Shown here piece by piece: positions 741 to 35,676 of a stretch of 42,291 bases of DNA. The stretch comes from Thermoleophilia bacterium (GTDB taxonomy: Bacteria > Actinomycetota > Thermoleophilia > Miltoncostaeales > Miltoncostaeaceae), in contig JADHKZ010000002.1 of assembly GCA_016780995.1 (NCBI GenBank), positions 1-42,291 of the forward strand, written 5' to 3'. Position 1 is the first letter of the stretch; every line of letters starts with the position of its first letter. The notes under the pieces were generated by a model. The model was given only the letters and a program-made list of their open reading frames with translations, searched no databases and was not told the origin of the DNA. The position numbers were made by a program, and so were the translations under genes.

Positions 741-769
741 TTGAGGGGTGGTGGGACACCTCATAGGTT
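741..769 (+). promoter_or_regulatory. Promoter of the cytochrome oxidase genes (leaderless)
   Basis: TTGAGG (741-746), a 17-nt spacer and TAGGTT (764-769) make the best-formed promoter in the window. Only 6 nt separate the -10 from ATG 776, so the transcript should start at or next to the start codon with no ribosome binding site. Confidence 0.6.
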
Positions 770-5674: not shown

Positions 5675-7177
5675 CTAGGACCCGGCCAGCGCGCCCGCGC
5701 GGTCGCGCAGGGCGGCGTGGGCGCGCGCGGCGCGATGCGCCGCCTCGGCCCCCCAGGCCTGCGCCTCGCCGATGGCATCGGTGCACGCCGCCGCCATGGC
5801 CTCGGTCTCGCCGGGAGCCGATGAGCCCCGCTGCAGCCGGGTGTCGGCCGCGGCGTCGGGGTCGAGCGCCCGGGCGATCACCTGTGCGTCCACCTGCAGG
5901 TCAATGCCGTCGCTCGCCATGGCGGCCTCGGCCAGCACCTCGGGCGTGAGCGCCGACTCATCCTTGCCCGCCTCCACCAGCATTCGCACGGCGCGCCCCA
6001 CCACGTGGTGCGCGGTCCGGTAATCCAGCCCCGCCTCCTGCGCCAGCACGTCCGACAGGTCGGCCGCGGTGATGAAGCCCCGCCGCGCGGCCTCGCCCGC
6101 CCGTGTGGCGTCGAGCGTCATGCGGTCCACCACGGCCGCCATGAGCCGGGCCGATGCCACGGCCTCATCCATGAGGCGCGGCACCACCGAGTTGAGCACG
6201 TGGAAGTGGTCGGTGCGGGCCGATCCGGTGTGCAGCGCCACCAGTATCCCGGCCAGGTCGCCGGACACCGTGCCGGCCGTGGCGCGCACCACCGCCAGCG
6301 CGTAGGGGTTCCTCTTCTGGGGCATCAGCGCACTGGCGCGGCTGTGCTCATCGGCCAGCTCGGCGATGCCGAACTCCTGGCTGGCCAGGATCTCCAGGTC
6401 CTGCGCCAGCTCGGACTGGTGCGTAGCCGCGGTGGCCGTGGCGGCCACCAGCTCCACGTAGGGGTCCCACTGCCACATGGCGTCCTTCACGTGGGGCACC
6501 ACGCCGGATGCGCCCAGCAGCTCGGCCAGGCGGTCGCGATCCAGTGGCCAGCGCGACCCCGCGCTGCCGCCCGCGCCGGCCACCGACATGTCCAGGTGGG
6601 CGTGCACGCGCCGCAGGCGTGCCGCGTCGCGCAGCGCCGGATAGGCGTACGCCAGCACCAGGTGCCCCAGGCGGGTGGGCTGGGCCGGCTGCAGGTAGGT
6701 GTAGTCGGCGGCCAGGTCGGTGGCGTGGCGCTGGGCCAAGCGCACCAGCGCGGCCGCCAGGTCGATGCAGGCATCGTGCAGCCGCAGCGCCGCATCACGG
6801 GCCACCAGGCGCAGGCCCACCCGGAAGGCCTCGCGGCGGGGCCTGCCCGCCGACAGCCAGCCGGCGGCCACCTTGCCGCAGCGCTCCTTCAGCTGGTGCT
6901 CGCGGCTGTTGAAGGCGTCGCCCAGCGCGGGATCCCACGGGAAGTCGTCGCCGGGAATGGCGTCCAGCTCCAGCAACGCGGCCAGCAGGGCGCGCGACTG
7001 ATCCGCCGGGATGGCCCCGGCCTCGGCCAGGGCGATCACGTGGGCCAGGTCCGACGTGGACAGGCCGTCGGCGAGGCGCGGGCCGGCTGCGGCCTCGTAG
7101 CGGTAGCCGGCCTCCACCAGCTCGTCCGCGGGGCCGCCCTCGAGGCGCCCGCCGCTGCCCAGGTAGTCCTCCGACAC
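5675..7177 (-). CDS. ArgH-like lyase of the fumarase/aspartase superfamily, substrate uncertain
   Basis: A 500-residue homologue of argininosuccinate lyase, recognisable from the fold order and from SALMPQKRNP, the superfamily signature loop that carries the catalytic serine. Other ArgH motifs are altered. The THLQ histidine is tyrosine (YTYLQPAQP; codon TAC confirmed), and the usual RSRNDQ stretch reads GRPRREAF. Argininosuccinate may therefore not be the substrate; other ArgH-like lyases act on different succinyl compounds. GTG 7177 starts 9 nt after the copA stop, and that TAG forms part of a TAGGCT -10 hexamer 6 nt before the GTG. No other arginine gene is in the window. Confidence 0.75.
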   Translation of the reverse strand: MSEDYLGSGGRLEGGPADELVEAGYRYEAAAGPRLADGLSTSDLAHVIALAEAGAIPADQSRALLAALLELDAIPGDDFPWDPALGDAFNSREHQLKERCGKVAAGWLSAGRPRREAFRVGLRLVARDAALRLHDACIDLAAALVRLAQRHATDLAADYTYLQPAQPTRLGHLVLAYAYPALRDAARLRRVHAHLDMSVAGAGGSAGSRWPLDRDRLAELLGASGVVPHVKDAMWQWDPYVELVAATATAATHQSELAQDLEILASQEFGIAELADEHSRASALMPQKRNPYALAVVRATAGTVSGDLAGILVALHTGSARTDHFHVLNSVVPRLMDEAVASARLMAAVVDRMTLDATRAGEAARRGFITAADLSDVLAQEAGLDYRTAHHVVGRAVRMLVEAGKDESALTPEVLAEAAMASDGIDLQVDAQVIARALDPDAAADTRLQRGSSAPGETEAMAAACTDAIGEAQAWGAEAAHRAARAHAALRDRAGALAGS

Positions 7178-7183
7178 GCCGGG

Positions 7184-7189
7184 AGCCTA
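7184..7189 (-). promoter_or_regulatory. -10 element overlapping the copA stop codon, for the ArgH-like gene
   Basis: On the minus strand TAGGCT (7189-7184) begins with the TAG stop of copA and ends 6 nt before the GTG start at 7177. It fits the leaderless TAnnnT pattern. No clear -35 is visible. Confidence 0.45.
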
Positions 7190-9376
7190 GCGGGCCGGCT
7201 TGAACCCCTTCAGACGCAGGGAGTTCGTGACCACGAAGATGCTCGACAGGCCCATGGCGGCGGCGGCGATGAGCGGGTTGAGCAGCCCCAGCACCGCCAG
7301 GGGGATGGCCGCCACGTTGTACCCGAAGGCCCAGGCCAGGTTGCCCTGGATGGTGCGCAGCGTGCGACGCGACAGGCGGATGGCATCGGCGATGGCCCGC
7401 GGGTCGGGGGTGACCAGCGTGATGTCCGCGGCCTCGGTCGCCACGTCGGTGCCCGTGCCGATGGCGATCCCCAGGTCGGCGCGCACCAGGGCCGGGGCAT
7501 CGTTCACCCCGTCGCCGGCCATGGCCACCACCTCACCGGCCTCCTGCAGCTCGCGCACCGCCCGCTCCTTGCCGTCGGGAAGCACGCCGCTCACCACCTG
7601 GTCGATACCCGCGGCCTCGGCCACCGCGCGGGCGGGGGCCTCGGCATCGCCGGTCAGCATCACCGTGCGCAACCCCAGGTCGCGCAGCATCTGCATGGCG
7701 CGCGGGGTCTCGGGGCGCATCACGTCGCTCACCGCCACCAGCCCGGCCACCTGACCGTCCACGCGCACGGCCACCACCGTGCGGCCCTGCTCCCGGGCGG
7801 CGTCGCGCGCCGCCTCCAGGCCAGCGGGAACCTCGTCGCTGCGCCACACCTCCACCTGATGCCCGTCCACCTGCGCGCTCACCCCCAGGCCGGCCTGTGA
7901 CCGGAACGCGCCGGCCGCCGCCAGCGGCCGGGCACGCGACGCCGCCTCGGCGATGGCCCGGCCGATGGGGTGCTCGCTACCGGCCTCGGCCGCGCCCGCC
8001 AGCGCCAGCACGCGGTCGGCATCCCACCCCGGTGCCGGGGCCACGTGCGCCACGGCCATCACGCCCTCGGTGAGCGTGCCGGTCTTGTCCAGAACGGCCA
8101 CGGTCACGCGCCGGGTGCTCTCCAGCACCTCGGGCCCCCGGATGAGGATGCCCAGCTCCGCGCCGCGGCCGGTGCCCACCATCAGTGCCGCCGGGGTGGC
8201 CAGCCCCAGCGCGCACGGGCACGAGATCACCAGCACCGCCACGGCGGCCGTCATGGCCTCACCCGCGGGGTTGCCGAGCGCCAGCCAGCCCACCAGCGTG
8301 CCCACGGCGATCAGGATGACCACGGGCACGAACACGCCGGCCACGCGATCGGCCAGCCGCTGCACGGGAGCCTTGCCCGCCTGCGCGGCCTCCACCAGTT
8401 GCGCCACGCGATGCACGGCGGTCTCCGACCCCACGCGGGTGGCGCGCACCGTGATGCGCCCGCCGGCGTTCAGCGCCCCGCCCTCCACGGGGTCACCCGG
8501 GCCCACCTCCACGGGCACGCTCTCGCCGGTGAGCAGGGCGCGATCCACGGCCGACATGCCGTCCTGCACCTCGCCATCCACCGGGATGCGGTCGCCGGGG
8601 CGCACCACCACCACCTCGCCCACCTGCACCGACGCGGCGGGCACCTGCACCTCGGCATGGCCGCGCAGCACCATGGCGGTGTCGGGCGCCAGGGCCATGA
8701 GCGACCGGATGGCCTCGCCGGCGCTGCGTCGCGCCCGGGCCTCCAGGAACCGGCCCAGCAGCACCAGGGCCACGATGCCCGCGGCCACCTCGAAATAGAT
8801 CTCCGCGCCCATGGAGTCGGACGGGAACAGCGACATGTGCATGGTCATGCCGATCTCGCCGGCGCCCAGGAACAGCACGGCCACCACCGACCATGCCCAC
8901 GACACCCCCGACCCAAGCGACACCAGGCTGTCCATCGAGAACGACCGGTGCATGAGCGCCCGCCACGCGCCCACGTGGATGGCCCAGCCGCACCACCACA
9001 CCACCGGGGTGGCCAGAACCAGCGATGCCCACTGCCATCCCGGGAACTGCAGCGGGGGGATCATCGACACCGCCAGCACGGGCACCGACAGGGCCACCGC
9101 CCAGATGAGGCGCAGGCGCAGCGCCGCCGCCACGCGTGCCGCGGCATCGGCGTCGTCCGCCGGCGCCGCCGATGCGGGCACGGCGTCGTACCCCGCGGCG
9201 CGCACCACCTGGACCAGCGCATCGTCGTCCAGCCCCGCGGGGGCCTGCACGCGTGCGCGCTCGGTGGCCAGGCTCACCGACGCGGTGACCCCGTCCACGG
9301 CATTGAGGGCCTTCTCCACGCGCGCCACGCAGGCGGCGCAGGTCATGCCCTCGATCACCAGGTCGTGCTCAGGCAA
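7187..9376 (-). CDS. copA: Copper-exporting P-type ATPase (P1B-1)
   Basis: Pumps Cu(I) out of the cytoplasm. The 729-residue protein has one N-terminal heavy-metal domain with GMTCAAC, the transmembrane CPC motif (C386-P-C388), the phosphorylated aspartate D430 in DKTGTLTEG, the SEHP nucleotide-binding motif, and the hinge GDGVNDAPALV. The last helices keep the YN, AM..SS and N.LRL pattern of Cu(I) pumps. The start is TTG 9376, overlapping the copZ stop by 8 nt; GTG 9358 is an alternative. Its neighbour encodes the copper chaperone, and the organism runs a copper-dependent oxidase, so both export and cuproprotein assembly are plausible roles. Confidence 0.92.
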   Translation of the reverse strand: MPEHDLVIEGMTCAACVARVEKALNAVDGVTASVSLATERARVQAPAGLDDDALVQVVRAAGYDAVPASAAPADDADAAARVAAALRLRLIWAVALSVPVLAVSMIPPLQFPGWQWASLVLATPVVWWCGWAIHVGAWRALMHRSFSMDSLVSLGSGVSWAWSVVAVLFLGAGEIGMTMHMSLFPSDSMGAEIYFEVAAGIVALVLLGRFLEARARRSAGEAIRSLMALAPDTAMVLRGHAEVQVPAASVQVGEVVVVRPGDRIPVDGEVQDGMSAVDRALLTGESVPVEVGPGDPVEGGALNAGGRITVRATRVGSETAVHRVAQLVEAAQAGKAPVQRLADRVAGVFVPVVILIAVGTLVGWLALGNPAGEAMTAAVAVLVISCPCALGLATPAALMVGTGRGAELGILIRGPEVLESTRRVTVAVLDKTGTLTEGVMAVAHVAPAPGWDADRVLALAGAAEAGSEHPIGRAIAEAASRARPLAAAGAFRSQAGLGVSAQVDGHQVEVWRSDEVPAGLEAARDAAREQGRTVVAVRVDGQVAGLVAVSDVMRPETPRAMQMLRDLGLRTVMLTGDAEAPARAVAEAAGIDQVVSGVLPDGKERAVRELQEAGEVVAMAGDGVNDAPALVRADLGIAIGTGTDVATEAADITLVTPDPRAIADAIRLSRRTLRTIQGNLAWAFGYNVAAIPLAVLGLLNPLIAAAAMGLSSIFVVTNSLRLKGFKPAR

Positions 9377-24454: not shown

Positions 24455-25324
24455 GTGGCTGAGGACGAGCCGAACGGCGGCGACCCGGGGACCCAGGGCG
24501 GTCCCTACACGGGTCCGCGCGCGGCCGACTACACCCCGGAACCGGACCACTCCGACGATCCGCGGTACGTCACGCGCACCCGTTTCCTGTCGAACGTGGC
24601 GTTCGCCGGCACGGGCGTGCTGGCGGCGGCCATCCTGGTGCCCGTCATCGGCTTTGCCGTTGCCACCCCGCTGCAGGACGAGAAGTACCGCTGGATCGAC
24701 ATCGGTCCGGCCAGCGACTTCCTGAAGAACCCGCCGCCGTACCCCAACGCCACGCCGTCCACGAGGGTCGGCGAGGTCACATCGCTCGCGGTGTCCGGCC
24801 CCACGTCCGACGCCGACCGCCGCATCTACGTGGTGTACGGCCTGAAGGATCCGTCCACGCGCCCCCAGCCCACGCCGGGCGAGGACGCCGCGGTCTTCGA
24901 GTCCAAGTTCCAGCGCTGGGCCGCCGGCCTGACTGCCGCAGACTTCGACCTGCTGGCCATCTGGAACCGCTGCGCCCATCTGGGCTGCCCGGTGGCCTAC
25001 TCGCCCGGTTCCGCCGGGTACGTGTGCCCGTGCCACGGTGGCGCCTACGACTCCCGCGGCCTGGTCACCGGCGGGCCGCCGCCGCGCCCGCTGGACCGCG
25101 TGGACATCAAGGTCATTGACAAGAGCAAGTCCTACACGCCCGAGCAGATCGCCCAGGGCAAGGACCGCGTTCCCCTCGCGGTGGCCGCCACGAGCAGCAA
25201 CCCCAACCTGCGGGTGCTGGTGGGCAAGCCGTATTCCATCGACCAGGAGCAGCAGTCCTTCCCGCTGGCCGACCCGGGATACCCGGTGTCGGGGACGCTC
25301 TCCCACCTCTACCCGTTCACGTAG
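24455..25324 (+). CDS. qcrA: Menaquinol:cytochrome c reductase, Rieske iron-sulfur subunit
   Basis: Passes electrons from menaquinol to cytochrome c through a [2Fe-2S] cluster. The 289-residue protein has an acidic N-terminal tail, a membrane anchor at about 47-70, and a Rieske domain. Cluster ligands are C173-x-H175 in CAHLGC and C191-x-x-H194 in CPCHGGAYDSRG; C178 and C193 would form the stabilising disulfide. GGPPPRPL follows. Rieske proteins are often exported by the Tat system, and TatA is encoded at 33459, although no clear twin-arginine is seen here. First of three qcr genes. Confidence 0.92.
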   Translation: MAEDEPNGGDPGTQGGPYTGPRAADYTPEPDHSDDPRYVTRTRFLSNVAFAGTGVLAAAILVPVIGFAVATPLQDEKYRWIDIGPASDFLKNPPPYPNATPSTRVGEVTSLAVSGPTSDADRRIYVVYGLKDPSTRPQPTPGEDAAVFESKFQRWAAGLTAADFDLLAIWNRCAHLGCPVAYSPGSAGYVCPCHGGAYDSRGLVTGGPPPRPLDRVDIKVIDKSKSYTPEQIAQGKDRVPLAVAATSSNPNLRVLVGKPYSIDQEQQSFPLADPGYPVSGTLSHLYPFT

Positions 25325-25333
25325 GAGCGAAGG

Positions 25334-26167
25334 GTGACGACCAAGGACATCGGGCCTAAGAACCCGCTCCAGAAGGGCACCGAGGACGCCATCGACTACG
25401 TCGACGAGCGCTCCGGGGTCAAGACGGGCACGCGCTGGTTCCTGTTCCGGAACATCCCCGAGGGCACCAGCTGGTTCCAGACGCTGGGCTTCACGGCGAT
25501 GGTGGTGTTCGGCATGCAGGCCATCACCGGGATCATCCTGGCGATGTACTACGTGCCCGACACCGAGGGCGGCGCGTACAAGAGCATCGAGTACATCACC
25601 AACGAGGTCACCTGGGGCTGGTTGGTGCGCGGCATGCACAAGTGGGGCGCCTCGGTGATGATCATCGTGGTGTTCCTGCACATGGCCCGCGTATTCATCT
25701 GGGGCGCCTACAAGTACCCGCGTGAGCTCACGTGGGTCACGGGTGCGTTCCTCCTGCTGCTCACCATGTTCATGGGCCTCACCGGCTACCTGCTGGTGTG
25801 GGACCAGAAGGCCTACTGGGCCACGGTGGTGGCGGTGAACATCTTCGCCAGCGCCCCCATCCTGGGGCCGTACATCGGCGACATCCTGCGTGCCGGCCCG
25901 GAGTTCGGACCCGCCACGCTATCCCGCTTCTATTCCATCCATATGCTCGTGATACCCGGCGCCATCGCCACCTTCATCGGGTTGCACCTGTACTTCATCG
26001 TGCGCCTGGGAATCTCCGAGCCACCGTGGTCCAAGCGGAGGCTCCGAATCGAGCGCGATGAGGAGGACGCCCGCCGCGAGGCCGCGCGCGAGCGCGCCAA
26101 GGCCCTGCCCGGCGCCGTGAACTACCCGTCCACGTGGCCGGTGGAGGCCAAGGAGTCCGCTCGATGA
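25334..26167 (+). CDS. qcrB: Menaquinol:cytochrome c reductase, cytochrome b (b6-like) subunit
   Basis: Binds the two b hemes that carry electrons across the membrane. The 277-residue protein is the short, four-helix cytochrome b6-like form. Heme histidines lie in MHKWGASVMIIVVFLHMARV and in IHMLVIPG / GLHLYFIVRL. The N-terminal tail is longer than in plastid b6 and the C-terminus is highly charged. The start is GTG 25334 with AGGAG a few bases before. It overlaps the next gene by ATGA. Together with qcrC this is the split b6/subunit IV architecture rather than the long cytochrome b of most actinobacteria. Confidence 0.92.
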   Translation: MTTKDIGPKNPLQKGTEDAIDYVDERSGVKTGTRWFLFRNIPEGTSWFQTLGFTAMVVFGMQAITGIILAMYYVPDTEGGAYKSIEYITNEVTWGWLVRGMHKWGASVMIIVVFLHMARVFIWGAYKYPRELTWVTGAFLLLLTMFMGLTGYLLVWDQKAYWATVVAVNIFASAPILGPYIGDILRAGPEFGPATLSRFYSIHMLVIPGAIATFIGLHLYFIVRLGISEPPWSKRRLRIERDEEDARREAARERAKALPGAVNYPSTWPVEAKESAR

Positions 26168-29866: not shown

Positions 29867-30954
29867 GCACCGCCACTCCCACCCGGCACCTGGACGTGAT
29901 CGCGCACCTCGACGCCGGCGGGCGGCTGGATGACGACGGCGCCCGGGCGCTCATCGAGTCGCGCGACGTGGTGGCCGTGGCCGCCGCGGCGCGGCGCGCG
30001 CGCGACCGCGTGACCGACCCGCACGAGGTCACGTTCGTCATCGACCGCAACGTCAACTACACCAACTTCTGCGTCACCGACTGCGACTTCTGCGCCTTCT
30101 ACCGCCACCCGCGCGATCCCGGGGGCTACGTGCTGAGCAAGCCCGTGATCTTCCGCAAGATCGAGGAGACCCTCGACCTGGGCGGCACGGCCCTGCTCAT
30201 GCAGGGCGGGCACCACCCCAACCTTCGCATCGAGTGGTACGAGGACCTCTTCTCGGACATCACCCGGCGCTACCCCATCCACCTGCACGCGCTGTCGCCC
30301 AGCGAGGTGCTGCACATCGCGCACTACTCCAAGCTGGACGTGGGCGAGGTGCTGGACCGCCTCATCGCGGCGGGCCTTGGATCCATCCCGGGTGGTGGCG
30401 CCGAGATCCTGGTGGACCGCGTGCGCGACATCATCGCGCCGCGCAAGACCACCACTGCCGAGTGGCTGGGGGTCATGCGCGAGGCGCACCTGCGCGGGCT
30501 GCGAAGCAGCGCCACGATGATGTACGGCACGGTGGACTCGGTAGACGACCGCATCGAGCACCTGCGCGTGCTGCGGGAGCTGCAGGACGAGACCGGGGGC
30601 TTCACGGCCTTCGCCTGCTGGTCGTACCAGCCCGGCGGCTGCTCGGCGCGCGGCGACGACCACCTGGGCACCACGGCCGCCGACTACCTCATGATGAATG
30701 CCGTGGCGCGGCTGTACCTCGACAACATCGCGCACATGCAGTCGTCATGGGTCACCCAGGGCCTGCGCATCGGCATGCTGGCGCTGGAGGCCGGGTGCGA
30801 CGACATGGGGTCCATCATGATCGAGGAGAACGTGGTGCGCGCCGCAGGCACGGCCTTCACGCTGGACACCCCGCGCATGGTGGAGGCCATCGAGGCCACC
30901 GGGCGCCGCGCCGTGCAGCGCGACACCTTCTACCGCGTGGTGCGCCGCTTCTAG
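29863..30954 (+). CDS. mqnC: Cyclic dehypoxanthine futalosine synthase (radical SAM)
   Basis: Radical SAM enzyme that cyclises dehypoxanthine futalosine. The 363-residue protein has the cluster cysteines C70-x3-C74-x2-C77 in CVTDCDFCAFYR, the LMQGGHHPN motif, and GCDDMGSIMIEENVV near the C-terminus, all typical of MqnC. Here the MqnE-type HxxxD variant is absent, supporting MqnC over MqnE. Its TAG is inside a CTAG shared with the convergent rhodanese gene. Confidence 0.93.
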   Translation: MSTATPTRHLDVIAHLDAGGRLDDDGARALIESRDVVAVAAAARRARDRVTDPHEVTFVIDRNVNYTNFCVTDCDFCAFYRHPRDPGGYVLSKPVIFRKIEETLDLGGTALLMQGGHHPNLRIEWYEDLFSDITRRYPIHLHALSPSEVLHIAHYSKLDVGEVLDRLIAAGLGSIPGGGAEILVDRVRDIIAPRKTTTAEWLGVMREAHLRGLRSSATMMYGTVDSVDDRIEHLRVLRELQDETGGFTAFACWSYQPGGCSARGDDHLGTTAADYLMMNAVARLYLDNIAHMQSSWVTQGLRIGMLALEAGCDDMGSIMIEENVVRAAGTAFTLDTPRMVEAIEATGRRAVQRDTFYRVVRRF

Positions 30955-31265
30955 GGCGTGGTCACCGGCAGGCCCGCCTGGTACCAGGCGACGATGCCGC
31001 CCTCCAGGTTGGCGATGTCGGTGAAGCCCTCGTTGGCCTCGAGGTGCTCGCACACGCTGCCCGACCGGGCGCCGCTGTGGCAGATGAACACCACGGTGCG
31101 GTCGCGCGGCACCTCGCCCAGGCGGGCGAGCAGCTCACCGATGGGGATGTGCACGGCGCCGGGCACCGACGCCTGCGCCAGCTCATCGGGCTCGCGCACG
31201 TCGATGATGACGGCGGTGCCGGCATCCACGGCGGCCTTTGCCTGCTGGGGAGTCATTGCCTTCAT
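30951..31265 (-). CDS. Rhodanese-domain sulfurtransferase
   Basis: A 104-residue single rhodanese domain. The active-site loop is CHSGARSG with the persulfide cysteine; IIDVREPDEL and LEGGIVAWYQAGLPV are family marks. The partner is unknown; lying directly downstream of lipA, it might supply sulfur for cluster repair, but this is context only. ATG 31265 has a TAGGTT hexamer 6 nt upstream that begins in the lipA stop codon. Confidence 0.88.
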   Translation of the reverse strand: MKAMTPQQAKAAVDAGTAVIIDVREPDELAQASVPGAVHIPIGELLARLGEVPRDRTVVFICHSGARSGSVCEHLEANEGFTDIANLEGGIVAWYQAGLPVTTP

Positions 31266-31271
31266 GCCCGA

Positions 31272-31277
31272 AACCTA
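31272..31277 (-). promoter_or_regulatory. -10 element overlapping the lipA stop codon, for the rhodanese gene
   Basis: TAGGTT on the minus strand (31277-31272) begins with the TAG stop of lipA and ends 6 nt before ATG 31265. The same layout occurs at copA/ArgH-like and amidohydrolase/TPR. Confidence 0.45.
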
Positions 31278-32348
31278 GATGACCCCGGCGCCCACTTCGT
31301 CGGCCACGCGGTCGGCCTCGAACGACGAGCGCACCAGAGGGCCGGCCTCCACGTGCGCCAGGCCCAGCGACTGCCCCAGCGCGGCCAGCGCCGGGTACTC
31401 GGCCGGGGCGTAGAAGCGCTCCACCGGAAGGTGGTCCGGCGAGGGGCTCAGGTACTGGCCCACGGTCACCACCTCGCACCCCGACGCCGCCAGGTCGGAG
31501 AACACCTGCGCCACCTCGGGGAGATCCTCGCCCAGCCCCACCATGATGCCGCTCTTGGTGGGCAGCCCCGCGGCACGGGATCGCTCCAGCAGCTCGAGCG
31601 TGCGCTCGTACCGCGCGCCGGGGCGCACGCGCCGGTACAGGCGCGGCACGGTCTCGGTGTTGTGGTTGAGCACGTCGGGGCGGGCCTCCAGCACGATGTC
31701 GAGCGCCTCCCAGTTACCGCGGAAGTCGGGGATGAGCACCTCCACCCGGGCATCGGGAAGCCGCTCGCGCAGCGCGCGGATGACCGCGGCGAAGTGCGCG
31801 GCGCCGCCGTCGGGCTGGTCATCGCGCGCAACGGCCGTGACCACCACGTAGCGCAGGCCCATGGCCGCGGCGGCGTCGGCCAGTCTCTCCGGCTCGCGCG
31901 GGTCGGGCGGCAGCATGGGCTTGCCCGAGGTCACGTCGCAGAATCGGCAGCCGCGCGTGCAGGTCTCGCCGGCGATCATGAAGGTGGCCGTGCCGCGCGT
32001 CCAGCAGCGCTGGATGTTGGGGCACGAGGCCTCCTCGCACACGGTGACCAGGCTCTCCTGGCGCATCAGCGACTTCAGCTGCACGTAGCCCGGACCGAAT
32101 GAGCCCTTCTCCACCACCCACCGCGGCAGCCTGCCGCCGTCCACCAGCTGCCTGAGCTCATCGGGGCTCACGTCCACGGGCTCCAGGGCGTCCGGCGGGC
32201 CGTCGCCCACCAGCACGCCGCCGACGATCACATCGGGCACCGCACCGCGCTCGCGGGCCACGCGCACGCGGGCCAGCAGGTCGTCGGCCGGATCCGCATC
32301 CACGCGGAACGCGCGCTGCAACTGCTCGTTGGCCGGGTTCGCCGCCAC
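31275..32348 (-). CDS. lipA: Lipoyl synthase
   Basis: Radical SAM enzyme that inserts two sulfurs into the octanoyl group of lipoyl domains. Both cluster motifs are present: CEEASCPNIQRCW for the auxiliary cluster and CTRGCRFC for the SAM cluster. The 357-residue length exceeds the usual ~300; the first ~75 residues form an extra N-terminal region rich in Val/Asp/Ala before the usual LPRWVVEKG. GTG 32348 is favoured by a TACCCT hexamer 7 nt upstream. No lipB is adjacent. Confidence 0.92.
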   Translation of the reverse strand: MAANPANEQLQRAFRVDADPADDLLARVRVARERGAVPDVIVGGVLVGDGPPDALEPVDVSPDELRQLVDGGRLPRWVVEKGSFGPGYVQLKSLMRQESLVTVCEEASCPNIQRCWTRGTATFMIAGETCTRGCRFCDVTSGKPMLPPDPREPERLADAAAAMGLRYVVVTAVARDDQPDGGAAHFAAVIRALRERLPDARVEVLIPDFRGNWEALDIVLEARPDVLNHNTETVPRLYRRVRPGARYERTLELLERSRAAGLPTKSGIMVGLGEDLPEVAQVFSDLAASGCEVVTVGQYLSPSPDHLPVERFYAPAEYPALAALGQSLGLAHVEAGPLVRSSFEADRVADEVGAGVI

Positions 32349-32355
32349 GCCCGTC

Positions 32356-32399
32356 AGGGTAGCCCAGCGCGCATCGACGGGGGGCGCATCGGGTAGCGT
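32356..32399. promoter_or_regulatory. Divergent leaderless promoters between lipA and dcd
   Basis: Minus strand TACCCT (32361-32356) lies 7 nt before the lipA GTG; plus strand TAGCGT (32394-32399) lies 8 nt before the dcd ATG. Unlike three other divergent pairs here, the hexamers are separate. The 12-mer TAGCGTGCCCGC also occurs before tRNA-Lys at 35706. Confidence 0.45.
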
Positions 32400-32407
32400 G
32401 CCCGCCG

Positions 32408-32980
32408 ATGGTGCTCTCCGACCGCACGATCCGCGAGCAGATCGCCGCCGGGCGACTGCTCATCGATCCCTTCGACGACGCGCTGCTGCAGCCGTCTTCG
32501 GTGGACCTGCGGGTGGACGGGGCCTTCCGGGTGTTCCGGAACAACCGCCAGCCGTTCATCGACCCGCGCGAGCCGGAGGCCGACCTCACCGAGGTGGTCA
32601 CGGTCGCCGAGGACGAGCCGTTCATCCTGCACCCCGGCGAGTTCGTGCTGGGCTCCACGCTGGAGCGCGTGGGCATCCCCGACGACCTGGTGGCGCGGCT
32701 CGAGGGCAAGTCCAGCCTGGGGCGCCTGGGCCTGCTCATCCACTCCACCGCGGGCTACATCGACCCCGGGTTCGAGGGGCAGATCACGCTCGAGTTCTCC
32801 AACGTCGCCAGCCTGCCCATCGCCATCCACGCGGGCATGCGCATCGGCCAGATCTCGTTCCTGCAGATGACCACGCCCGTGGACCGCCCCTACCAGGGCA
32901 AGTACCAGGGCCAGGCGGGGCCCACGTCCAGCCGCGCGCACCGCGACTTCGAGGCCGACGCCGCCCGCGGCGGCGCCTAG
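32408..32980 (+). CDS. dcd: dCTP deaminase, dUMP-forming type
   Basis: Supplies dUMP for thymidylate synthesis. The 190-residue protein has [49 protein letters not shown] and KYQGQAGPT. The sequence follows the mycobacterial bifunctional deaminase/dUTPase closely, including the length and HSTAG loop, so dUMP formation in one step is likely. ATG 32408 follows a TAGCGT hexamer by 8 nt. Its stop shares a CTAG with the convergent membrane protein gene. Confidence 0.93.
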
Positions 32981-33693: not shown

Positions 33694-35022
33694 TTGCCCT
33701 CCGCCCTCATCCGGGCGGAGTGGGTGCTCCCCGTGGAGGGCCCCGTCGTGCAGGGCGGGGGGGTCCTGGTGCAGGACGGGGCCATCGTGGCCGTGGGACG
33801 CGAACGCGACCTGCCGCCATGCGACGGCGTGCCGGTCACCGACCTGGGCGGCGCCATCCTCATCCCCGGCCTGGTGGATGCCCATTGCCACCTGGAGTGG
33901 GGGCTCATGGGGGGGCTCGTGCCTGACGCCGGGTTCGGCGACTGGCTGGGGGCGTTCATCCACCGCACGGCGGGGGTCACACCGGCCGATCGCGAGCAGG
34001 CGGCCCGCTGGGCGGCGCTCACGGCGCTCCGGCGGGGCACCACCACGCTGGCCGACTCCGGCCCCAGCGGATTCGCGGCACCGGCAGCCGGCCAGGCCGG
34101 CCTGCGCGCCGTGGTGCACATGGAGATCTTCGGCCGCGACACCGGGCACGACGCCCGCGAGAAGGTGGCGCGCCACGGCGAGGCGCTGCTCGAGGCGCGC
34201 GAGCAGGCCGGCCCCCGGGTGCGCATGGGGGCGTCGCCGCACTCGCCCTACACCGTGGGGCCCGAGCTGTGGAGCGAGGTGCTTGCCGACCCCATCCTGG
34301 GCGCCGCGCCCCTTGCGGCCCACGTGGCCGAGAGCCCGGACGAGGTGCTGCTGCTCGACCAGCAGGTGGGCCCACTGGTGGAGGCCATCACCTCGGTGGG
34401 CCGTGACCCCGCGCGGTGGCCCGGAGGGGGCCCGGGCGTGGTGTCGCGGCTGGAGGCCGCCGGGGCGCTGGCCCCCGGGCTGGTGGCCGCGCACTGCGTG
34501 CAGGTGGACGAGGACGACGCCGCGCTGCTGGCGGCCCGCGACGTGCGGGTGGCGCACTGCCCGCACTCGAACGCGCGGCTGCAGTGCGGCGACGCGCCCG
34601 TGGAGGTGCTGCAGGCGCTGGGGGTGGCCGTGGGCCTTGGCACCGACAGCCCTGCCAGCGCCGGGGCCTACGACCTGCGTGACGAGGCCCGGTGGGCGGC
34701 CGAGGGCGTGGCGCGGCGCGGCGGCACGCCCCTGGCGGCCGACATGCTGGCGATGGCCACCATCGGATCGGCCACGGTCCTGGGCATGCAGGGCGAGGTG
34801 GGATCGCTGGTCCCGGGGAAGCGGGCCGACATGGTGGCCATCCGGCCGTTCGAGGGGGCGCCCGTGGAGGCCGACCCGTCGCTCGTGGCGCTGGACCCGC
34901 GCTCCCGCATCGCGGCCTCATGGGTGGACGGCGAGCTGGTGCTGGGGCCGGACGGGCCCGTGCTCCTGGACGCCGGTGCCATCGAGGCCGATGCCGCGGA
35001 GGCCCGGGCCCGGATCATGTAG
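33694..35022 (+). CDS. Amidohydrolase, candidate aminodeoxyfutalosine deaminase
   Basis: A 442-residue metal-dependent hydrolase of the TRZ/ATZ-SAH deaminase group. Metal and catalytic motifs are DAHCHLEW (HxH), AAHVAES.DE, AAHCVQVDEDD and LGTDSPAS, plus SPHSPYTV; the C-terminal GSLVPGKRADMVAI is the usual beta-sandwich edge. Some futalosine-pathway organisms use an amidohydrolase (MqnX) to deaminate aminodeoxyfutalosine. With mqnA and mqnC 3 kb away this is a good candidate, but guanine, SAH or other deaminase roles fit the sequence equally. The TTG start is 7 nt after tatA; its TAG stop forms part of the next -10 element. Confidence 0.8.
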   Translation: MPSALIRAEWVLPVEGPVVQGGGVLVQDGAIVAVGRERDLPPCDGVPVTDLGGAILIPGLVDAHCHLEWGLMGGLVPDAGFGDWLGAFIHRTAGVTPADREQAARWAALTALRRGTTTLADSGPSGFAAPAAGQAGLRAVVHMEIFGRDTGHDAREKVARHGEALLEAREQAGPRVRMGASPHSPYTVGPELWSEVLADPILGAAPLAAHVAESPDEVLLLDQQVGPLVEAITSVGRDPARWPGGGPGVVSRLEAAGALAPGLVAAHCVQVDEDDAALLAARDVRVAHCPHSNARLQCGDAPVEVLQALGVAVGLGTDSPASAGAYDLRDEARWAAEGVARRGGTPLAADMLAMATIGSATVLGMQGEVGSLVPGKRADMVAIRPFEGAPVEADPSLVALDPRSRIAASWVDGELVLGPDGPVLLDAGAIEADAAEARARIM

Positions 35023-35025
35023 CGT
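35020..35025 (+). promoter_or_regulatory. -10 element overlapping the amidohydrolase stop codon, for the TPR-like gene
   Basis: TAGCGT starts with the TAG stop of the amidohydrolase gene and ends 6 nt before GTG 35032. It is the third case of this stop-codon/-10 fusion in the window. Confidence 0.45.
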
Positions 35026-35031
35026 CGCCGC

Positions 35032-35676
35032 GTGCTGTTCGACGGCAGGCATCACAAGAAGGTCATCAAGGCGATCGCCATCGTCACCGTCATCGTCTTC
35101 GCGGGTTTCGGCTTGGTGGTGGGCGGAATGGCGGTGGGCGGGGGATGCGCGGCAGCCGACCCGCTGGTGCAGGCCGTGGACGACGCCCAGGAGCGCGTCA
35201 CCACCGCGCAGGCCAACCTCTCCTCCGCGCAGGCGGCGGCCAAGGCATCACCGAAGAGCGCCACCGCGAAGGCCGACCTGGCCCAGGCGCGCACCGACGT
35301 CGGGATCGCGCTGTCGTCGCTGGCCCAGGCACGCCTTGCCGTGTCGGGCACCGACCCTCAGGCCCTGGCCGATGCCCAGGCGGCCGCCAAGAGCGCGCCG
35401 GGCGACCAGGACGTGGTGCTGGGGCTGATCACGATCGCCACCTCGCAGAACAACCCGTCCTCCGCGCTGCCCGCGGTGGCCGCCTACACGCGCATCAACC
35501 CCCGAGACGCGCAGATGTACGCCTACTGGGGCCAGCTGGCCGAGCAGGCGGGGCAGCGCAACCAGGCCATCCTGGCCTACCAGCGGTTCCTGGACCTGGC
35601 CCCGCAGGACACCGTGGCCCCCGATATCCGACAGCGCCTGGCCGAGCTCACGAAGCAGGGCTCCTCGGCAGGCTGA
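35032..35676 (+). CDS. Membrane-anchored TPR-like protein
   Basis: A 214-residue protein with a basic start, a signal-anchor helix at about 12-35, an Ala/Gln-rich helical (probably coiled-coil) region at about 45-105, and two TPR-like repeats from about 120, including YAYWGQLAEQAGQRNQAILA and YQRFLDLAP. It is likely an extracytoplasmic scaffold. No specific partner is suggested by its neighbours. Confidence 0.75.
   Translation: MLFDGRHHKKVIKAIAIVTVIVFAGFGLVVGGMAVGGGCAAADPLVQAVDDAQERVTTAQANLSSAQAAAKASPKSATAKADLAQARTDVGIALSSLAQARLAVSGTDPQALADAQAAAKSAPGDQDVVLGLITIATSQNNPSSALPAVAAYTRINPRDAQMYAYWGQLAEQAGQRNQAILAYQRFLDLAPQDTVAPDIRQRLAELTKQGSSAG

What the first reader, a model, noticed from the sequence alone, without database searches (positions are those of the whole stretch)
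7184..7189. Stop codon of copA doubles as the -10 element of the next gene
The TAG of copA is the first half of TAGGCT, 6 nt before the GTG of the ArgH-like gene. The gap is exactly 9 nt. The same arrangement occurs at lipA/rhodanese (TAGGTT) and amidohydrolase/TPR (TAGCGT), also with 9-nt gaps. Three cases with identical geometry suggest a recurrent solution to compaction in which a translation signal and a transcription signal share bases.
Basis: partly seen in the sequence, partly recalled or inferred. Interest (0 to 1): 0.7.

Follow-up and report, generated by a model that had tools for sequence, protein, structure and literature searches.

The report
Stop codons embedded in leaderless promoters
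In this small, GC-rich freshwater actinobacterium many genes seem to begin transcription exactly at their start codon, and where such a gene closely follows another, the upstream gene's TAG or TAA stop codon is often also the first half of the downstream gene's promoter (-10 box), so the same three bases appear to serve translation and transcription.

Summary
In detail: three gene pairs in the window have a TAG stop that opens a TAGnnT hexamer 6 nt before the next start codon. The hexamer has every computational mark of a leaderless -10 promoter (TANNNT). In 721 kb of the genome, TAnnnT peaks 6-8 nt before starts (119 of 715 genes, about 1 per position elsewhere), and those genes lack Shine-Dalgarno motifs. 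TAG/TAA-ended genes followed by a same-strand start at 9-11 nt carry T at +6 in 15/22 cases, against 20/326 otherwise (p=5e-12); six relatives pooled give 19/30 against 40/410 (p=3e-11). Stop and -10 coincide in 34 of 124 same-strand leaderless genes; other offsets nearby reach at most 3. Across congeners, six unrelated pairs keep the box; where the stop moved away (8 clear cases) it stayed with the downstream start. 'Compaction' is unproven; capture of the upstream stop by a TAG-bearing promoter is at least as good an account. No transcript data exist here, so the transcription start is inferred. It is a new variant of a known kind.

The parts
7184..7189 (-). TAGGCT: copA stop codon (7189-7187) and predicted -10 box of the ArgH-like gene
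   Evidence: box found at 16 orthologous junctions, spacer 6-7
7178..7183 (-). 6-nt spacer CCCGGC between hexamer and start; predicted transcription start at the G of GTG (leaderless)
   Evidence: sequence; spacer class 6 of the genome-wide 6-8 peak
5675..7177 (-). downstream gene, ArgH/fumarase-superfamily lyase (best NCBIfam model XcbC-like, below its cut-off), GTG start at 7177
7187..9358 (-). upstream gene copA, heavy-metal P-type ATPase, ends in TAG
31272..31277 (-). TAGGTT: lipA stop codon (31277-31275) and predicted -10 box of the rhodanese gene
   Evidence: coupled in 9 junctions; in 3 others the stop lies 38 nt upstream without T at +6 while TAGGTT stays 6 nt before ATG
30951..31265 (-). 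rhodanese-domain gene, predicted leaderless, ATG at 31265
31275..32348 (-). lipoyl synthase lipA; its own start has TACCCT at spacer 7
35020..35025 (+). TAGCGT: amidohydrolase stop codon (35020-35022) and predicted -10 box of the TPR gene
   Evidence: coupled in 12 junctions; in L269 the stop is TGA with a gap of 24 and TAGCGT stays 6 nt before GTG
33724..35022 (+). amidohydrolase gene, ends in TAG
35032..35676 (+). TPR-repeat gene, predicted leaderless, GTG at 35032
764..769 (+). TAGGTT, predicted leaderless -10 for the gene starting ATG 776; here the TAG is not a gene's stop (upstream stop is 100 nt away), an in-window uncoupled example

Best explanation
The hexamers are -10 boxes (consensus TANNNT, most often TAGnnT here) of leaderless promoters. 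The housekeeping sigma factor binds TAGGCT at the end of copA, transcription starts at or within about two bases of the GTG/ATG, and the mRNA is translated without a Shine-Dalgarno sequence. Because the -10 box begins with TA and usually has G in third place, it contains a ready stop codon, and the upstream gene ends on it. T1 and A2 then serve both functions, base 3 is held to G or A by the stop, and T6 is held by the promoter alone. Shown: positions, statistics, absence of Shine-Dalgarno, conservation, and persistence of the hexamer when the stop moves. Inferred: sigma binding, the transcription start and leaderless translation. Most likely origin (inferred): the -10 belongs to the downstream gene, and upstream genes acquired their stop from it, because it is one of few stop-bearing sites in a 72% GC spacer.
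For: TAnnnT peaks at spacers 6/7/8 before called starts (47/34/38 of 715 genes; 0-4 at any spacer of 12-29), and also at divergent genes (64 of 204) where no upstream stop exists. Genes with the motif have 0 Shine-Dalgarno 5-mers, against 61 observed and 9.7 expected in other same-strand genes. T at +6 after TAG/TAA is specific to gaps of 9-11 and is not a stop-context effect (TAG/TAA ends facing convergent genes 6/160). Stop and -10 coincide exactly in 15/53 (own genome) and 19/71 (six relatives) same-strand leaderless genes. Six unrelated pairs keep the box in congeners while bases 4 and 5 vary in four of them; TAG and TAA interchange in one. Decoupled orthologues keep the -10 at the downstream start: argH L158 (copA ends TGA, gap 22, TATTCT at spacer 7), L147 and L153 (about 1 kb between), rhodanese L236/L237/L239 (gap 38), TPR L269 (TGA, gap 24), MMPL gene L300 (TGA, gap 17). 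Removing the stop of uncoupled leaderless pairs would land the frame on the -10 in 4/34 and 7/45, against 0/206 and 6/302 in controls. TANNNT about 12 bp upstream of starts is the published mark of leaderless genes in Actinobacteria (PMC3160421).
Against: No RNA data exist for this organism. No -35 consensus was seen (no TTGACA match of 5/6 or better among 64 divergent leaderless promoters), though weak -35 boxes are usual in this phylum. Two same-family genomes show little of the effect in 200-kb samples (G022 1/5, G024 0/0 at 9-11 nt), and a more distant argH homologue (L078) follows a TAG at 9 nt with no T at +6. Start codons come from a home-made gene caller. The direction of evolution is not resolved.
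Confidence: 0.88

Rival explanations
1. Chance: TAG is a common stop in this genome and T at +6 with a start 9 nt on is coincidence found by scanning for patterns.
For: TAG is 45% of stops here, and the three cases were picked by eye.
Confidence: 0.01
2. The spacing is a translational signal: terminating ribosomes re-initiate 9-11 nt downstream on a read-through mRNA, and the T is incidental.
For: Short stop-to-start distances do support re-initiation in general (background in PMC4633059), and it could operate in addition on read-through transcripts.
Against: The same hexamer stands at the same distance before divergent genes with no upstream stop and stays when the stop moves 17 to 995 nt away. 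A re-initiation signal would not need T at +6 or exclude TGA.
Confidence: 0.06
3. Same promoters, opposite history: the stop codon came first, and single mutations creating T at +6 turned TAG/TAA stops near a start codon into promoters (stop codons as seeds of new -10 boxes).
For: Single-base creation of TANNNT boxes with transcriptional effect is documented in the M. tuberculosis complex (PMC6728331). TAG stops with gaps of 9-11 but no T exist (7 in the sample) as a possible raw pool.
Against: For argH the box is present in distant relatives without copA next to it (L075, L079), and -10 boxes of divergent genes favour G at position 3 anyway (31/64), so no stop is needed to explain TAG.
Confidence: 0.2
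4. Selection for compact genomes actively favours sharing bases between stop and -10.
For: Small genome (1.67 Mb) with 93% coding. Coincidence in 27-28% of same-strand leaderless genes exceeds the 12-16% expected from random stop loss.
Against: The excess over the capture expectation is modest and rests on small counts. The pattern is as strong in a 2.6 Mb class relative (G031, 8/9). Spacers and whole genes are found between some pairs without loss of the box.
Confidence: 0.2

Closest known systems
Leaderless genes with TANNNT -10 signals in Actinobacteria and Deinococcus-Thermus (PMC3160421; mycobacterial maps PMC4633059, PMC6448022)
   Same: TANNNT about 12 bp before the start codon, no Shine-Dalgarno, ATG/GTG starts
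   Different: Here in Thermoleophilia; the box is superposed on the upstream gene's stop codon. The passages of these papers read here do not describe that overlap.
recX of Mycobacterium tuberculosis, leaderless promoter internal to recA (PMC3062782)
   Different: The promoter lies inside the coding sequence of an overlapping gene; in the passages read no stop codon is reported as part of the -10, and it is one case rather than a recurrent register.
Stop codon/Shine-Dalgarno overlap in short co-directional spacers (PMC2784483)
   Same: An expression signal of the downstream gene shares bases with the upstream stop and shapes stop usage and gap length
   Different: There the shared signal is translational (SD); here it is transcriptional (-10). 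The window holds both kinds (TAGGAG at 25322; TAGGCT at 7189).
ATGA/GTGA 4-nt overlaps (translational coupling)
   Same: Stop shares bases with a signal of the next gene
   Different: Stop shares with the start codon, uses TGA and is the commonest same-strand junction here (130 cases); the present pairs use TAG/TAA and appear to carry their own promoter.

Membership tests
Leaderless TANNNT promoter | TANNNT at a fixed distance, about 12 bp, before the start codon | tested here: met
   Spacer 6-8 peak, 119/715 genes; all three window cases spacer 6
Leaderless TANNNT promoter | no Shine-Dalgarno in front of the gene | tested here: met
   0 SD 5-mers in 117 motif genes with a classified upstream neighbour (expected 2.9), against strong enrichment in other classes
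Leaderless TANNNT promoter | signal independent of the upstream gene | tested here: met
   Present before divergent genes; kept in 8 clear decoupled orthologues
Leaderless TANNNT promoter | transcription starts at the start codon | not testable with these tools
   needs 5'-end mapping
Sigma-70-type two-part promoter | -35 hexamer 16-18 bp upstream of the -10 | tested here: not met
   No TTGACA match of 5/6 or better at spacers 14-21 in 64 divergent or 15 coupled promoters; -35 boxes are often weak in this phylum, so this does not exclude sigma-A
Stop/SD overlap | stop codon inside a purine-rich anti-SD-complementary motif | tested here: not met
   The three pairs have TAGGCT, TAGGTT and TAGCGT with no GGAG/GAGG/AGGA; the fourth 9-nt pair (25322) does meet it
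Translational coupling by stop/start overlap | RTGA or similar overlap of stop and start | tested here: not met
   gap is 9 nt in all three

The most novel reading that the evidence does not exclude
In GC-rich genomes with leaderless transcription, the -10 box and the upstream stop codon evolve as one composite element. Promoters act as backstops that terminate upstream reading frames, and TAG/TAA stops act as half-made promoters, so stop codon choice (TAG/TAA against TGA) is partly set by transcription of the next gene.
Probability: 0.35. Interest if true: 0.65.

Novelty: new variant of a known kind. Interest (0 to 1): 0.52.

Why it matters
It gives a sequence rule that marks independently transcribed genes hidden inside apparent operons: TAG/TAA + nnT + 6-8 nt + RTG, without Shine-Dalgarno. 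Operon prediction by short gaps would wrongly call these pairs co-transcribed only, and gene callers can use the box to fix starts. It shows one force on stop codon choice other than release factors or composition: TGA cannot serve because it breaks A2 of the -10. It also provides a clean four-way mutational test, since TAA keeps both functions, TGA keeps only the stop, TAC keeps only the promoter, and a change at T6 removes only the promoter.

Tried and rejected
Chance and stop-context effects were tested and rejected. A Shine-Dalgarno reading of the three hexamers was rejected. A -35 box was sought and not found. Overlap of the stop with T6 of the box (offset +5) was considered; only one case turned up. 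Pooled loci from Acidimicrobiia and other Actinomycetes around the argH homologue had too few motif genes to tell. Deinococcus deserti plasmid 2 (250 kb) gave one T-bearing pair out of one at 9-11 nt, too few to tell. Literature searches found no description of stop/-10 overlap, but subscription papers are mostly missing from the library.

Full report
What is there. On the minus strand, 7189-7184 reads TAGGCT: the in-frame TAG of the copA P-type ATPase gene plus GCT, then CCCGGC, then the GTG of a lyase gene. Gene identities were checked against Pfam and NCBIfam. The genome is a 1.67 Mb, 106-contig assembly, 96% complete, about 72% GC. Its nearest named relatives are mostly environmental Thermoleophilia/Miltoncostaeales assemblies; 'freshwater' is inferred from isolate names there.

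A leaderless promoter class in this genome. I called genes in 721 kb with a codon-usage model that knows nothing of promoters (768 genes, 93% coding). TAnnnT upstream of starts is nearly absent except for a sharp peak ending 6, 7 or 8 nt before the start codon (47, 34 and 38 of 715 genes), and it is strong in front of divergent genes too (64 of 204). Genes with the box have no Shine-Dalgarno 5-mers (0 of 117, 2.9 expected), while the other classes are clearly enriched (for example 61 observed against 9.7 expected). This is the published signature of leaderless genes in GC-rich bacteria (PMC3160421). The third base is G in 64 of 119 boxes and in 31 of 64 divergent ones, so the box often spells TAG even where no stop is needed.

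Superposition on stops. Among TAG/TAA-ended genes with a same-strand start 9-11 nt on, 15 of 22 have T at +6, against 20 of 326 other TAG/TAA ends (p=4.9e-12); TGA-ended pairs at those gaps are few (4) and none has the T. Gaps of 9-11 are commoner after TAG/TAA (22/89) than after TGA (4/61, p=0.004); in relatives 30/127 against 4/114 (p=4e-6). The enrichment of T is at +6, not at neighbouring positions. The effect repeats in same-genus genomes G018 (4/5) and G008 (3/6) and in class relatives G031 (8/9) and G038 (3/5), but not in same-family samples G022 (1/5) and G024 (0/0). Measured the other way, the upstream stop falls exactly on the first base of the box in 15 of 53 and 19 of 71 same-strand leaderless genes, while no other offset from -40 to +14 exceeds 3 in either set.

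Evolutionary test. For the three window pairs and three further pairs (in front of an MMPL-family transporter gene, of a ribulose-phosphate 3-epimerase gene behind an rsmB-type gene, and of an HD-domain gene behind a nuclease/helicase gene) I read the junctions in up to 20 congeners (families). In the 89 junctions that carry the box, T1, A2 and T6 stand by definition of the search, so the informative facts are these: within the genus every TAG/TAA stop read at a gap of 9-11 is followed by T at +6; bases 4 and 5 vary in four of the six sets; and in the MMPL set TAG and TAA interchange. Outside the genus there is an exception: L078 has a TAG 9 nt before the argH homologue without the T. Where the two functions are separated, the box stays with the downstream start. 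In argH L158, copA ends in TGA 22 nt upstream and TATTCT stands 7 nt before GTG; in L147 and L153 about 1 kb lies between and TAGGCT stays. In rhodanese L236, L237 and L239 the stop is 38 nt upstream, reads TAGGCG or TAGGCA and lacks the T, while TAGGTT stays 6 nt before ATG. In TPR L269 the stop is TGA at 24 nt and TAGCGT stays. In MMPL L300 the stop is TGA at 17 nt and TAGTCT stays, at spacer 9. In five other MMPL orthologues and one rhodanese orthologue both are gone. Two junctions scored as decoupled by the script (L293, L298) are ambiguous because the upstream match is broken there, and I do not count them.

How it most likely works. The box is a sigma-A type -10 element, transcription begins at or next to the start codon, and the message is translated leaderless. 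The upstream gene terminates on the TAG or TAA that the box contains. TGA is excluded because its G would replace A2. These steps are inferred from sequence; no transcript was measured. The relation need not be selected for compaction. In a 72% GC spacer stop codons are scarce and the box is one of few sites with one. Deleting the present stop of uncoupled leaderless pairs would make the frame end on the box in 4 of 34 and 7 of 45 cases, against 0 of 206 and 6 of 302 in pairs without a box. The observed 27-28% coupling is somewhat above that, so a selective component remains possible, as does the reverse history in which a stop near a start gains a T and becomes a promoter (single-base creation of TANNNT is documented, PMC6728331).

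Known relatives. Leaderless TANNNT genes (PMC3160421, PMC4633059, PMC6448022), a leaderless promoter inside the upstream gene (recX in recA, PMC3062782) and stop/Shine-Dalgarno overlap with adapted stop usage (PMC2784483) are all described. I found no description of a stop codon serving as the -10 of a leaderless gene as a recurrent arrangement, within a library that lacks most subscription papers. I class it as a new variant of a known kind.

Limits.

Noticed in passing
window 25322-25336 (+): A fourth TAG pair with a 9-nt gap is TAGGAGCGAAGG-GTG: here the stop overlaps a Shine-Dalgarno motif (GGAG) instead of a -10 box, the kind of arrangement described in PMC2784483.
   Followed up: partly
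window 5675-7177 (-): The ArgH-like gene misses the NCBIfam argH cut-off (255.5 against 279.5 bits) and scores best with the XcbC model of bacterial coenzyme M synthesis (411 bits, cut-off 575); another ArgH homologue is on contig C46, so this is probably not the arginine-pathway enzyme.
   Followed up: no
own genome, 721 kb sampled: For a 72% GC genome TAG is strikingly common: 324 TAG, 374 TGA, 26 TAA. Convergent genes end TAG 155, TGA 52, TAA 5, and TGA owes much of its share to 4-nt overlaps (130). Class relative G038 has no TAA among 189 stops.
   Followed up: partly
window 32349-32407: lipA (-) and the gene at 32408 (+) diverge from a 59-bp gap that holds a leaderless-type -10 for each (TACCCT at spacer 7 and TAGCGT at spacer 8), a very compact bidirectional promoter.
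   Followed up: no
L081 around 982 (+): In a distant Thermoleophilia assembly the copA-like/argH-like pair is coupled by TAA instead of TAG (TAACCT-GGCGGA-GTG), suggesting the arrangement at this locus is old or arose twice.
   Followed up: partly
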